A stretch of 48,102 bases of DNA from Bdellovibrionales bacterium (GTDB lineage Bacteria > Bdellovibrionota > Bdellovibrionia > Bdellovibrionales > UBA1609), in assembly GCA_028819545.1 (NCBI GenBank), contig JAPPLG010000031.1:1-48102 (forward strand). Direction: 5' to 3'. Made by a program: the position numbers and the translations under genes. Under the pieces are notes generated by a model, which was not told the DNA's origin, made no database searches, and worked only from the letters and a program-made list of their open reading frames with translations. Positions 5,833-20,490 of the stretch are shown here, piece after piece. How positions within the stretch are numbered: the stretch's first letter is position 1; every line of letters begins with the position of its first letter.

Positions 5833-6804
5833 TTATGATCGGGAAAAAGTATCTGCACAGCCTTTGCCAAAAATTAAATCAGACAAACCTTTTGTGTCTC
5901 CATACTCTGCCTTATACCACCTTTTAAGAGTGCTCCAAGCAGGAAGCCTTCGATCCTTATAACGAAATTTTTCATACGTCTTCCTGCTTTTCATCTGCTC
6001 TTTCTCTGAAGACTCTGTATTAATTTCTGCTACTGCTGACGGAACTTCCTCCAAGTTATACAGTTGAAAATTTAAACTCCCTTCGAAAATAAAATTAGAA
6101 GCTCCCCTTCCATCCCCATATTTTTCTTTAAACCAATTGACAATTGTACCCCAGGAGGGAAGCTTTGGATCCTTAAAGCGAAACTCTTCATAAGTGGCAA
6201 TACTTCTCATTTGCTCTTTTTCAGGTGACCTGGCATTTAAGTTAGTAACTTTTGATGGAATTTCGTCTAAATCATAAAACCTAAAATAAGGCTCTTTACT
6301 TGAAAGTACAAAACTTAACAGCCCCTCCCCTTCTCCATACACCTCTGTAAACCAATTGACAAGAGAGGTCCAGGAAGGAAGCTTAAGATCTCTATGACGA
6401 AATTGATTATAAGTCTCTACGTCTTTTATTTGCTCTTCTGCAGGCAATTTTGCATTCAAATCAGCCACTGCTAATGGAACTGCTTCCAACGCATAAAGCG
6501 TAGATATTGTATGTCTATCCGGAAAAATAAAATCATAAAGCCCTTTTGTATTTCCATACTTTGCTTTGTACCATCTATAAATGGTAATCCAAGATGGAAG
6601 CTTAGGGTCTTTATAGCGAAAAGCATTATACGTCATTGCATTTCTCATATATTCTGATTGAGGTGATTTTTCATTTAATCTTTCCACTGCTGATGGAATT
6701 TCTTCTAAATTATATACACCTTGGCTTTCAGCTGGATCTGAATAAAAACAAAGAAATAAAAAACAAAAAAGAAAATGAAGGCTATATCTTTGCATTTGAT
6801 ACAC
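5833..6804 (-). CDS. Secreted protein with four LPSW-type tandem repeats
   Basis: Function unknown. The 323 residues start with a hydrophobic signal segment (~6-21) and then consist of four repeats of 72-76 residues (about 30-102, 103-175, 176-247, 248-323). Each begins with a (F/V/L)Y-x-L-(E/D)-E/A-(I/V)P motif, has TY-xx-FR near its middle, then K-LPSW (LPAW in repeat 4), an RWYK/NWFK helix, a KYG turn and a GL-xx-F(I/V) end. The last segment carries one Cys (GKGCAD). It is a paralogue of the gene at 6985-8394 and probably arose by gene plus repeat duplication. The start could be GTG at 6804 or ATG at 6795. Fold guess: helical, with the second half recalling the small helical repeats associated with homing endonucleases (pattern PS-x-x-TL-x-x-x-FG); this is inference. 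Confidence 0.8.
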   Translation of the reverse strand: MYQMQRYSLHFLFCFLFLCFYSDPAESQGVYNLEEIPSAVERLNEKSPQSEYMRNAMTYNAFRYKDPKLPSWITIYRWYKAKYGNTKGLYDFIFPDRHTISTLYALEAVPLAVADLNAKLPAEEQIKDVETYNQFRHRDLKLPSWTSLVNWFTEVYGEGEGLLSFVLSSKEPYFRFYDLDEIPSKVTNLNARSPEKEQMRSIATYEEFRFKDPKLPSWGTIVNWFKEKYGDGRGASNFIFEGSLNFQLYNLEEVPSAVAEINTESSEKEQMKSRKTYEKFRYKDRRLPAWSTLKRWYKAEYGDTKGLSDLIFGKGCADTFSRS

Positions 6805-6984
6805 TCAGCCTATTGATGAGCACCACAATAAAACGCATAACTACATTTACACATAACAATTACAATATAATTTATTTGAAAAAATGTAAATTTTGTACAA
6901 CTGACAGTTACAATTTGAATCACTTTAAGAACTCACAACAAAAAATTTAAAAATATGTTGTTCCCTATTGAAACATAATTAAAT
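6805..6984. other. AT-rich intergenic region between the two LPSW-repeat genes
   Basis: These 180 bp contain no gene. The region is very AT-rich and holds several TTACAAT-like words plus an imperfect inverted repeat GTAAATTTTGTAC at 6886-6898. It presumably contains the promoter of the downstream gene; I cannot place -35/-10 boxes with confidence. Confidence 0.4.
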
Positions 6985-8394
6985 TTACAATGTAGCCATC
7001 TCACGCTCACAACTTCTACTAAACATAAAATCTGCAAGACCTTTTGAACTTCCATGTATTTTTTTATACCAACGTGCAAGAGCACCCCAAGAAGGAAGTT
7101 TTGGATCTTTGCTACGAAACTCCTCATAAGTGTGTTGATTTCTGATATATGCCTCTCCAAAAAACTTTATATTAAAATTGATTATTGCTGAGGGAATGTC
7201 CTCTAAAGTGTAAAGCTTGGGGCGAGGCGGAGGCACAGGGTTTGGAAGTTGTCCTCTAAAAACAAAATCAGCAACACCTATTCCATGTCCATATGTCTCT
7301 TTAAACAAACCTACAAGAGTCATCCAAGATGGAAGCTTTGGATCTTGATCACGAAAGTCCTCATAAGTCATCTTGCTGGTCATTTGCTTCTCTACTGAAG
7401 AATTTTTATTCAAGCTTGCCACTGCCGAGGGGACTTCTTGTAAAATATATAACTTAGACTGGCGTGGGGTTTTCTCAGGGGGTTCCTTTAATGTTCCCCT
7501 TTGAAAAACAAAATCTGCAAGACCTACTTCAGAGTCATGCTTTTCTCGATACCAACTTGCAAGAGCACTCCAAGATGGAAGCTTTGAGTCCTTATCATAA
7601 AACTGCTTATATGTTGATATGTTTGTCATCTGTGCATCCGGGAATTTTTCATTGAAACTCACCACTGCCGAGGGAACCTCTTCCAAAGAGTACAATCTCT
7701 CCCTTTGAAAAACAAAACTTGCAAGACCTGCTCCAGAGCCATGCTCTTCCCGATACCAACGGGCAAGAGTCATCCAAGATGGAAGTTTCGGATCTTTATC
7801 ATAAAAACTTTTATAAGACACCTGACCCCTGATTTGCTCCTCCTCTAAAGATTCTTTATTCAAGCTTGCCACTGCCGACGGAATCTCTTCCAAAGTGTAA
7901 AGTTCCTCCCTCTGAAAAACAAAATCTGCAAGACCTCCTCCAGAGCCATGTTTGTCTCGATACCAACGGGCAAGAGTCATCCAAGATGGAAGTTTCGGAT
8001 CTTTATCATAAAAACTTTTATAAGACACCTGACCCCTGATTTGCTCCTCCTCTAAAGATTCTTTATTCAAGCTTGCCACTGCCGACGGAATCTCTTCCAA
8101 AGTGTAAAATCTCTCCTGCTGAAAAATAAAACGGGCAAGACCTTTTGAGCTTCCATGTTTTTTCTCATACAAACGTGTAAGGGTGCTCCAAGACGGAAGC
8201 TTTGGATCCTTATTATAAAACTGCTTGTATGTTGATATGTTTGTTATCTGCGTATCTGGGAACTGTTCATTGAAGCTCACCACTGCTGAGGGCACTTTCT
8301 GCAACTTATAGTAATCACCACTTTGCCTAGCTAAAGCCTGATTGGAACAAATCAATAAAAATATAAAAAGAATAAAAAAGAGAAACCCTTTCAT
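6985..8394 (-). CDS. Secreted protein with six LPSW-type tandem repeats
   Basis: Function unknown. A clear signal peptide (residues 1-22, hydrophobic 4-16, ALA before R23) is followed by six repeats at about 27-95, 96-164, 165-233, 234-314, 315-393 and 394-469. The shared pattern is Y-x-L-xx-(I/V)PSA(V/I), a variable acidic helix, (T/S)Y-xx-F, D-x-KLPSW, a basic helix usually ending WY, (K/E)xHG or YG, and G-(L/V)A-x-F(V/M/I)F. Linkers after repeats 4 and 5 are Pro-rich. Repeats 2 and 3 are almost identical in DNA, so copy number is still evolving. The C-terminal segment has one Cys (SRSCER), as in the paralogue downstream. A soluble periplasmic or secreted binding protein is the simplest guess; no catalytic motif is visible. 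Confidence 0.82.
   Translation of the reverse strand: MKGFLFFILFIFLLICSNQALARQSGDYYKLQKVPSAVVSFNEQFPDTQITNISTYKQFYNKDPKLPSWSTLTRLYEKKHGSSKGLARFIFQQERFYTLEEIPSAVASLNKESLEEEQIRGQVSYKSFYDKDPKLPSWMTLARWYRDKHGSGGGLADFVFQREELYTLEEIPSAVASLNKESLEEEQIRGQVSYKSFYDKDPKLPSWMTLARWYREEHGSGAGLASFVFQRERLYSLEEVPSAVVSFNEKFPDAQMTNISTYKQFYDKDSKLPSWSALASWYREKHDSEVGLADFVFQRGTLKEPPEKTPRQSKLYILQEVPSAVASLNKNSSVEKQMTSKMTYEDFRDQDPKLPSWMTLVGLFKETYGHGIGVADFVFRGQLPNPVPPPRPKLYTLEDIPSAIINFNIKFFGEAYIRNQHTYEEFRSKDPKLPSWGALARWYKKIHGSSKGLADFMFSRSCEREMATL
7696..8109. repeat. 207-bp tandem duplication inside the LPSW-repeat gene
   Basis: Repeats 3 (7696-7902) and 2 (7903-8109) are adjacent 207-bp units. Over their last ~140 bp (plus-strand order) they appear identical apart from the final base, with differences concentrated in the first ~60 bp. 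The other repeats are far more divergent, so this is a recent duplication or the product of gene conversion. Confidence 0.9.
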
Positions 8395-18639: not shown

Positions 18640-20490
18640 ATGAGCCCTATCACAGCCTGGAAAGAAAAATTTCAAGTTTCAACTTCCTGCACACTTGCAG
18701 AAGCATTGAAAAATCAGATTATCAATGAATCTGAATATCAGGAATGGGCCTCTAAATACTACGGGATTCCCGTAATGAAGGATGATTTTTTTGAGAAACA
18801 TTCATCAAACACAAAATTTCTGGAAACAGTACAAAATATTGCAAATCCATCAGCTATCCCCTGCTTTGAATGGAATAGCATCTTGTATGTGGCCTGTCTT
18901 GAACCGCAGGAAATCCATACAGATCAAAAAACAGTCTTTTTTATTACGTCCATTAAATCCATGGAGTCCTTATGGAAAAATTTTGAGCCTTCTAAAAAAG
19001 AAACAGTCAAGCAAGAGCAAAATCTTTCCCTTTCAGAGAATCCAAAAACCTCCATCCAAAAAGAAAAAGAGCCTCAAAAAGCAGAAGAAAAAACCTTAGA
19101 TATACAACAAAAATCCACTGTTCAAAAAATGGAAAATGACGGTATTGAGTTTGACAGCATGAACCCCTTTAGAGCTTTTATGTTTGCTGTAGGCGATCTT
19201 GCAAAAGCTTTTATGGGATTCATTGCTCCAAATCAAAAAAAATCTAAATACCCAATAAAACAAAAAACAAAATCGGTTACTATTCCAAACACTGATAAAA
19301 ATAATTTAAAAGAAGCTGTAGTCAATCAGGCCAACATAAAAGAAGTTGAAAAAGCTTCTTCTCAAACAATTATACCGGAATCCATTATCTCTGAAATAGA
19401 AGAAAGCGATCAGGTACAAAACACTCCACCTGCAACAAGAAAATCTTCTGGAGAAAAAGAACCTGCAGATATTGCTTTAGATGATGAAAGACCTAATGAC
19501 ATTGACAAACAATCCAAAAACTTAAAAGAAGAAGTGTCTATGCCTATTGCTTTAGATACAGGTGAGAAACCTGCTGAGGCTGATAAACAATCTATAGATC
19601 CAAAAGAAAAAGAAGAAACGCCTATGCCCATCTCTTTAGACATAGATGAAAAATCTATTGATACTGACGAACAATCCGCAGATTCAAAAATAGCAGAAGC
19701 CCCCACACCCATCGCTTTAGATACAGGTGAGAAACCTGCTGAGGCTGATAAACAATCTATAGATCCAAAAGAAAAAGAAGAAACGCCTATGCCCATCTCT
19801 TTAGACATAGATGAAAAATCTATTGATACTGACGAACAATCCGCAGATTCAAAAATAGCAGAAGCCCCCACACCCATCGCTTTAGACACAGAAAAGAAAC
19901 CTGCTGAAGCTCCACCTACACAAGAAGATGAGCAGTCACCTCATACATCTGGGAATTCACCATCCATGGATGAAGGAAACAGCCAGGAGCACGAAAGTAC
20001 AGCAAGCTCTTTTTTAATACTAGATCAAAAGAGAGCAACCTCAATGGATCAACTCAGCCCCATAAGGAGACCCCTGGAAGAAACAAAACATTACATTAAT
20101 TCTTATATACTGTTTATCTTCAAAGAAGGCTCTTTTATACCTTACAAATGGAGTTCCAACCTGCAGTCAGAAGAAAAAAAAGTTGCAGGTATTATAAAAA
20201 AACCTTCTGTTTTTCGTATTGTTCATGCCAGTAAACAACCCTACTTTGGGCATATTGCTCCTGTACTGGCAAATAACTCCTTTTTTAATCAATGGGGGTT
20301 TGAAACCCTTCCCAAACATGTGATTCTTATTCCATTTTTAGATGCCGAGAAACAAAATGTACTTGGAGTGTACCTTGGTATTTCTGAAACACGCACACTG
20401 CCCATTAAGTGTCTGCACGCCATTGAACAAATTGTCCAGCCTTTATCCACTTATTATGAAGACGGAAGTTTACTAAAGAAAGTTTCCTGA
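18640..20490 (+). CDS. Unknown cytosolic protein: MshEN-like start, repetitive acidic linker, GAF-like end
   Basis: Not recognised as a named gene. Residues ~10-115 (SCTLAEALKNQIINESEYQEWASKYYGIPV... AIPCFEWNSILYVACLEP) look like the MshEN fold that begins PilB/GspE ATPases and some c-di-GMP binders, but without clear ligand residues. Residues ~115-465 are a hydrophilic linker rich in Glu, Lys, Ser and Pro with a perfect 55-residue tandem repeat. Residues ~485-616 (INSYILFIFKEGSFIPYKW, FRIVHASKQPYFGHIAP, HVILIPFLDAEKQNVLGVYLG) resemble a GAF domain. There is no signal peptide. It sits near the pilus genes, so a signalling role with them is possible but unproven. Confidence 0.6.
   Translation: MSPITAWKEKFQVSTSCTLAEALKNQIINESEYQEWASKYYGIPVMKDDFFEKHSSNTKFLETVQNIANPSAIPCFEWNSILYVACLEPQEIHTDQKTVFFITSIKSMESLWKNFEPSKKETVKQEQNLSLSENPKTSIQKEKEPQKAEEKTLDIQQKSTVQKMENDGIEFDSMNPFRAFMFAVGDLAKAFMGFIAPNQKKSKYPIKQKTKSVTIPNTDKNNLKEAVVNQANIKEVEKASSQTIIPESIISEIEESDQVQNTPPATRKSSGEKEPADIALDDERPNDIDKQSKNLKEEVSMPIALDTGEKPAEADKQSIDPKEKEETPMPISLDIDEKSIDTDEQSADSKIAEAPTPIALDTGEKPAEADKQSIDPKEKEETPMPISLDIDEKSIDTDEQSADSKIAEAPTPIALDTEKKPAEAPPTQEDEQSPHTSGNSPSMDEGNSQEHESTASSFLILDQKRATSMDQLSPIRRPLEETKHYINSYILFIFKEGSFIPYKWSSNLQSEEKKVAGIIKKPSVFRIVHASKQPYFGHIAPVLANNSFFNQWGFETLPKHVILIPFLDAEKQNVLGVYLGISETRTLPIKCLHAIEQIVQPLSTYYEDGSLLKKVS
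19551..19880. repeat. Perfect tandem duplication, two 165-bp units, in a coding linker
   Basis: Units 19551-19715 and 19716-19880 appear identical by eye over their whole length, and the first bases of a third copy follow (TTTAGACACA, one change). 165 is a multiple of three, so each unit adds 55 residues in frame. Each unit also has an internal half-repeat (IALD.../ISLD...). Confidence 0.93.

What the first reader, a model, noticed from the sequence alone, without database searches (positions are those of the whole stretch)
5833..8394. Two secreted paralogues made of ten LPSW/LPAW-core repeats
The two proteins contain four and six copies of a ~65-70-residue unit with a strict pattern: Y-x-L-E-E-(I/V)PSAV, TY-xx-F, KDPKLPSW, (R)WY-K, (Y/H)G, GLADF(I/V)F. 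Both have signal peptides, variable repeat number and a single late Cys. I do not know this family. The second half loosely recalls homing-endonuclease-associated helical repeats (PS-x-x-TL-...-FG), which would be surprising in an exported protein. Candidate roles are adhesion, cell-wall binding or an effector scaffold for interaction with another cell.
Basis: partly seen in the sequence, partly recalled or inferred. Interest (0 to 1): 0.75.

Follow-up and report, generated by a model that had tools for sequence, protein, structure and literature searches.

The report
Exported helicase-type repeat arrays
Two neighbouring genes of a small-genome relative of the predatory bacterium Bdellovibrio encode exported proteins built from ten copies of a helical unit that related bacteria carry at the end of exported DNA/RNA helicases, and both end in a cysteine tag that recurs on exported proteins across this bacterial order; if the tag marks delivery into other cells, this is a new class of nucleic-acid-targeting effectors.

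Summary
In detail: two tandem minus-strand genes encode exported proteins of four and six tandem ~65-81-residue units. The units are not family-less. Through exported helicases of the same bacterial family they connect, by intermediate sequences, to the Pfam 'integrase repeat unit' (INT_rpt, PF14882), a repeat that elsewhere mostly sits behind SF2 helicases. Direct comparison of the window units with INT_rpt is not significant; the link depends on intermediates. AlphaFold2 gives a confident four-helix unit, and its nearest viral models are giant-virus SF2 helicases. The same 1.45-Mb genome encodes at least seven exported proteins with units of these two types; sister genera keep the exported helicase, while this genome keeps arrays only. 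The 'single late Cys' belongs to a terminal C-x-x-x-[FLM] motif (usually Phe) on otherwise cysteine-poor exported proteins; it recurs in three other genomes of the order, on proteins that include Fic, ABC1-kinase, DnaJ and ankyrin domains. Best explanation: Sec-exported, tagged nucleic-acid-binding array effectors that act in another cell. Export, fold and kinship are supported by computation; nucleic-acid binding, the tag's role and delivery are inferred. New variant of a known kind; the tag may be new.

The parts
5833..6804 (-). Protein A: exported 4-unit array, 323 aa
6985..8394 (-). Protein B: exported 6-unit array, 469 aa
6721..6804 (-). Protein A signal peptide (heuristic; cleavage about aa 27-28, DPAES|QGVYN; the true start may be the ATG at codon 4)
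8326..8394 (-). Protein B signal peptide (heuristic; cleavage about aa 22-23, SNQALA|RQSG)
6508..6714 (-). unit A1
6289..6495 (-). unit A2
6061..6276 (-). unit A3
5860..6060 (-). unit A4 (LPAW variant)
8110..8310 (-). unit B1
7903..8106 (-). unit B2
   Evidence: modelled
7696..7899 (-). unit B3 (195/207 nt identical to B2)
7489..7692 (-). unit B4
7246..7449 (-). unit B5
7012..7212 (-). unit B6
5836..5859 (-). C-terminal tag of A: CADTFSRS (C-x-x-x-F)
6988..7011 (-). C-terminal tag of B: CEREMATL (C-x-x-x-M)

Best explanation
The two proteins are Sec-exported arrays of a four-helix unit related to the helicase/integrase repeat INT_rpt. They derive from (or share ancestry with the tails of) exported SF2 helicases of the same bacterial family; in this reduced genome the helicase motor is gone and the arrays have multiplied into a multigene family. 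Each unit would contribute a helical surface that holds DNA or RNA, so an array clamps nucleic acid over several turns. A C-terminal C-x-x-x-[FLM] tag, shared with other exported proteins of the order at either end of the mature protein, would route or anchor them, most likely for release into the host or prey cell, where the family's exported helicases could find ATP. Supported here by sequence or prediction: arrays, export signals (heuristic), fold, kinship through intermediates, the exported-helicase context, and tag enrichment. Inferred: nucleic-acid binding, the tag's function, delivery into another cell.
For: Arrays and paralogues. Intermediates: G012 carries units of the window type (E 2e-12) behind an exported SF2 helicase. 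Its orthologue in G028 (35% over 707 aa, E 9e-126, alignment running on through the repeats) carries INT_rpt-type units. hhalign: window units vs G012 units P 3e-6, G012 vs G028/G029 units P 1.8e-7 (0 of 60 column shuffles reach it), G028/G029 vs INT_rpt units P 2e-20. Own genome encodes three exported INT_rpt-type arrays (Pfam 1.7e-12, 1e-6, 4.6e-4) and an array unit fused to an RpoA-CTD-like domain (1.3e-8). Fold: pLDDT 87, four helices per unit; best viral-model neighbours are SF2 helicases (INT_rpt-type model likewise). Exported helicases recur in G028, G029, G266, G012, G033, G021 and probably G264. Tag: 17 of 19 terminal single-Cys exported proteins in G000, and 9 of 9 in three other genomes, have F/L/M at +4. 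Tag-bearing proteins include Fic, ABC1, DnaJ and ankyrin domains.
Against: Direct profile comparison of window units with INT_rpt units is not significant (A2 vs A4, 6 of 60 shuffles reach the local score), so kinship rests on intermediates. I found no shown biochemical function for INT_rpt, so nucleic-acid binding is inferred from its company. The mature window proteins are near neutral (pI 7.8 and 8.2), not strongly basic as the cytoplasmic helicase array is (pI 10.0). The Foldseek match to a viral helicase is weak for the window type (E 0.21, prob 0.60), and no PDB fold matches. No secretion machine or host is identified.
Confidence: 0.45

Rival explanations
1. The arrays are protein-protein interaction scaffolds, like ankyrin or HEAT arrays in effectors: the unit has been detached from any nucleic-acid role, and variable copy number tunes a binding surface for a host or prey protein.
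For: Near-neutral pI; variable copy number and recent unit duplication; other exported proteins of the genome carry ankyrin and DnaJ/HEAT-like domains.
Against: The intermediates sit behind a helicase motor, one paralogue carries an RpoA-CTD-like domain, and outside this clade the related INT_rpt units often follow helicases. These all point to nucleic acid.
Confidence: 0.27
2. Periplasmic or outer-surface structural proteins of the bacterium itself, tethered by the terminal Cys (disulfide or lipid), with no delivery into another cell.
For: One Cys in the mature protein at an extreme end would suit tethering; Sec signals lead only to the periplasm unless a second step exists; the tag is order-wide, not limited to one lifestyle.
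Against: The same kind of export signal and terminal Cys motif occur on ATP-dependent helicases, a Fic protein, an ABC1 kinase and a DnaJ protein, which need cytosolic cofactors or partners.
Confidence: 0.2
3. Decaying leftovers of exported helicases or mobile elements without present function.
For: The helicase is lost in this genome, the proteins are lineage-restricted (3 of 369 genomes with a match, one of them weak), and G029 carries a degenerate exported helicase.
Against: Intact reading frames, 11 invariant columns over ten units, conserved signal peptides and tags in several dispersed paralogues, and recent unit duplication argue for selection.
Confidence: 0.06

Closest known systems
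INT_rpt, 'Integrase repeat unit', Pfam PF14882
   Same: Helical tandem unit with the same order of elements: S/T-x-E-E helix, I-x-S-x-x-Y/F helix, P-S/xP turn, Y...W...F/L end; shared position behind the exported SF2 helicases of G012 and G028.
   Different: Window units are 66-81 aa with KDPKLPSW and a GLADFIF end, lack the WGDFLG end, score below the Pfam cut-off (19.5 vs 26.5 bits) and show no significant direct profile match; they are exported.
HNH_repeat, PF18780 (homing-endonuclease-associated repeat)
   Same: The PS-x-x-T-L ...
   Different: No match at E<=10 in the genome or in the proteins.
SF2 helicases of giant viruses (Terrestrivirus, Marseillevirus LCMAC102, Klosneuvirus, Bodo saltans virus)
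   Same: Best named viral-model structural neighbours of the two unit types.
   Different: Viral proteins are whole helicases without known export; the window-type match is weak (E 0.21).
TAL effectors (repeat-array DNA-binding effectors)
   Same: Works-like analogy only: exported tandem helical repeats possibly holding nucleic acid (reviewed in PMC4617103).
   Different: 30-42 aa units in type III effectors (PMC4617103); no sequence kinship tested or seen, and no two-residue recognition code seen here.
MYXO-CTERM sorting tag (PMC11980579)
   Same: Lineage-wide terminal tag on exported proteins with an invariant Cys.
   Different: From my own knowledge MYXO-CTERM has a transmembrane helix and basic end after the Cys; the C-x-x-x-[FLM] motif has neither and sits at either the N- or the C-terminus.

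Membership tests
INT_rpt PF14882 | Whole-protein score above Pfam cut-off 26.5 bits | tested here: not met
   Protein B 19.5 bits, E 0.0012; protein A no match. Own-genome exported arrays L064 and L065 pass (47.8 and 29.3 bits), L066 does not (20.8).
INT_rpt PF14882 | Profile kinship through intermediates | tested here: met
   A1-G012 P 3e-6, G012-G028/G029 P 1.8e-7, G028/G029-A4 P 2e-20; orthologous exported helicases carry the two unit types in the same place.
INT_rpt PF14882 | Direct profile-profile match | tested here: not met
   A2 vs A4 and A1 vs A4 not significant.
INT_rpt PF14882 | Same fold | tested here: inconclusive
   Both modelled as four short helices per unit and both near giant-virus SF2 helicases, but helix lengths differ and no direct superposition was possible.
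HNH_repeat PF18780 | Pfam match | tested here: not met
   No match at E<=10.
SF2 helicase | ATPase motor | tested here: not met
   The window proteins are repeats only; no helicase match. The family's exported helicase motor is not found in G000, only repeat matches remain.
Pfam YscD ppl_3rd / NBP1 (hits above cut-off) | Coherent domain-length match | tested here: not met
   21-28-residue stretches whose scores add up over the repeats; different unrelated families for A and B.
Secreted effector acting in another cell | Translocation into host or prey | not testable with these tools
   Signal peptide and tag only; no experiment.

The most novel reading that the evidence does not exclude
Bdellovibrio-type bacteria mark exported proteins destined for the cytosol of another cell with a short terminal motif, C-x-x-x-[FLM] (usually Phe), after Sec export; one class of such cargo is ATP-dependent helicases and, in this reduced genome, free arrays of their nucleic-acid-binding repeats that have expanded into a repertoire of host- or prey-directed nucleic-acid binders.
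Probability: 0.25. Interest if true: 0.88.

Novelty: new variant of a known kind. Interest (0 to 1): 0.64.

Why it matters
Exported ATP-dependent helicases make little sense in a periplasm, so their repeated occurrence in this family, plus free arrays of their repeat, points to an unrecognised route by which predatory or host-associated bacteria act on another cell's nucleic acids. The terminal Cys motif gives a simple, testable handle for listing the exported arsenal of a whole bacterial order whose prey-directed effectors are largely unknown.

Tried and rejected
Pfam hits above cut-off (YscD, NBP1 for A and B; AMP-binding and others for L010) rejected: 20-50-residue stretches summed over repeats, a different family each time. 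NCBIfam: nothing above cut-off. PDB by sequence and by fold: nothing significant. HNH_repeat: no match. Phages and plasmids: no tblastn match. Window-type units in named genomes and viral contigs: none; A2 was too diverse for the pattern search. Direct window-INT_rpt hhalign: not significant. The tag test in a first, small G012 sample was uninformative (2 terminal single-Cys proteins), and the relaxed test that admits Cys-rich proteins is only weakly enriched (15/41, P 0.01). Literature: no description of the tag or of exported INT_rpt proteins found in the open library; absence there is weak evidence.

Full report
What is there. Two minus-strand genes lie between purE and a purM-linked gene pair. 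Protein B (6985-8394) has six and protein A (5833-6804) four tandem units. The ten units share 11 invariant columns and each scores E 1e-31 or better against the set profile. Units B2 and B3 are 195/207 identical in DNA. Both proteins start with a Sec-type signal peptide and, after it, have one Cys, eight residues from the end.

A larger family. The same genome (1.45 Mb, 35 contigs, 95% complete) encodes further diverged members: a 400-aa array on C1, a unit at the end of a protein with an RpoA-CTD-like domain on C8 (Pfam 1.3e-8), a one-unit 101-aa protein on C9 and a 501-aa array on C34. Among 369 genomes of the phylum only one further genome, G012 of the same family, has clear relatives (E 2e-12); a third match is weak (7.8e-4, with a stop).

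Link to a known repeat. In G012 the units sit behind an exported SF2 helicase with ResIII and Helicase_C domains and in two shorter proteins, one with a visible signal peptide and one cut off at its contig end. In G028, same genus, the orthologous exported helicase (35% identity over 707 aa, E 9e-126, alignment continuing through the repeats) carries units of the INT_rpt type instead. Profile comparisons close the chain: window vs G012 units P 3e-6; G012 vs G028/G029 units P 1.8e-7, not reached by 60 column shuffles; G028/G029 vs INT_rpt units P 2e-20. Window vs INT_rpt directly is not significant, so kinship is by intermediates and I do not file the window proteins as INT_rpt members. The genome also encodes three exported arrays of the INT_rpt type. 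Elsewhere in bacteria, archaea and viral contigs INT_rpt units follow SF2 helicases in about a third of the ORFs examined, and a clear signal peptide was called only in the Bdellovibrionaceae record. The other cases in this phylum found here, G017 and G126, are helicases without a signal peptide.

Exported helicases. A family-wide search finds the exported helicase or relatives in G028 (five places), G029 (three), G266, G012, G033 (two), G264 and G021. Most of those whose start was readable have a signal peptide followed closely by a Cys (FACSKAF, EEDCSPSL, LTCQAEM, STCGPQL, SDTCNVAL); in G266 and G264 my heuristic did not call the signal peptide although the N-terminus is hydrophobic. The window's genome retains only repeat matches. 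An ATP-driven helicase has no energy source in the periplasm, so I infer that these proteins work in an ATP-containing compartment outside the bacterium.

Fold. Two tandem window units are predicted with mean pLDDT 87 and four helices each. Two INT_rpt units from L064 give pLDDT 89.5 and four shorter helices each. PDB has no match. Among viral models the window type is nearest to SF2 helicases of Terrestrivirus (E 0.21, prob 0.60) and, lower, Marseillevirus LCMAC102; the INT_rpt type to an unnamed 309-aa viral protein (E 3.5e-6) and to helicases of Bodo saltans virus (6.7e-3) and Klosneuvirus (0.03).

The Cys tag. Every complete stand-alone window-type array ends in C-x-x-x-[FLM] plus a few residues (CADTF, CEREM, CENEL, CESTM, CMESF, CPKGF; CQRVF in the truncated L053). 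The exported INT_rpt arrays carry it just after the signal peptide (CQHEF, CPDVF, CERSL). The motif was noticed on these and then tested. Rule: predicted signal peptide, no lipobox, exactly one mature Cys, within 15 residues of the mature N-terminus or 18 of the C-terminus. In 820 kb of G000 10/13 N-terminal and 7/7 C-terminal cases have F/L/M at +4 (background 18%, P 6e-6 each); in the part fetched after the motif was noticed 7/9 and 2/2. Other offsets have 0-5 of 19. In three further genomes (G004 same family, G042 and G048 another family of the order) 9 of 9 cases fit, all with Phe (P 1.2e-7). One of these (L200) is probably a membrane enzyme misread as exported, leaving 8 of 8, and L090 in G000 includes a similar doubtful case. 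Sixty loci from other phyla gave no such protein among 35 exported ones, a small control. Tag-bearing proteins include a Fic protein (1.1e-7), an ABC1 kinase (1.5e-30), a DnaJ protein (1.2e-21) and an ankyrin protein.

Lifestyle. Named neighbours are 'Bdellovibrionaceae bacterium CAR1_bin_21' (the G260 contig) and 'Oligoflexia bacterium RHO2_bin_34' (the G261 contig). The bin codes may stand for the sponges Carteriospongia and Rhopaloeides sampled in PMC8163846, but I could not confirm this. Repeats of these types, apart from the G017 helicase, occur within the family only in genera with genomes of 1.4-2.0 Mb, which fits a host-dependent life without proving it.

Mechanism. Sec export, then tag-dependent routing or anchoring, then nucleic-acid clamping by the array in another cell, is the reading I commit to at 0.45. 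Only the anatomy, the kinship through intermediates and the tag statistics are computed results. Novelty: a new exported variant of a known repeat kind; the order-wide tag may be new, and I found no description of it in the open literature searched.

Noticed in passing
L100:18094-19533, L102:2630-3862, L102:4419-5432, L109 near 1602, L110:15716-17119, L118:443-1339, L121:17636-18793 (G000); L185, L192, L199, L206, L210, L211 (other genomes): Order-wide C-x-x-x-[FLM] motif at the mature N- or C-terminus of exported proteins with few cysteines; carriers include Fic, ABC1-kinase, DnaJ and ankyrin proteins.
   Followed up: partly
L154 (G028:C223): Three large exported helicases (1032-1589 aa open frames) in tandem, each with FACSKAF after the signal peptide and a further diverged repeat ending ...DPELQHIPK...GGW...
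   Followed up: partly
L110:15716-17119 and L117 from 12599 (G000): DnaJ-domain proteins with signal peptides (467 aa and about 1700 aa); exported J-domain proteins are odd outside effectors. The second was read by eye only.
   Followed up: no
L011:4482-6009: Exported protein with long repeated RRVTPSEESRRRASEAVRGAGQAVGEKAKGL segments, an RpoA-CTD-like domain and one window-type unit; an N-run interrupts it.
   Followed up: partly
L078:4791-8114 and L079:279-3497: Mrr-type nuclease + ResIII helicase + 6-7 INT_rpt units without signal peptide (G017, G126): possible defence or mobile-element proteins.
   Followed up: no
window 19410-19889: A 159-aa repetitive antisense ORF opposite the tandem acidic repeats of the 18640-20490 gene; probably not a gene.
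   Followed up: no
L225 (Nitrosopumilales contig): At least four adjacent ORFs with 2-6 INT_rpt units each, a multigene array family in an archaeon.
   Followed up: no
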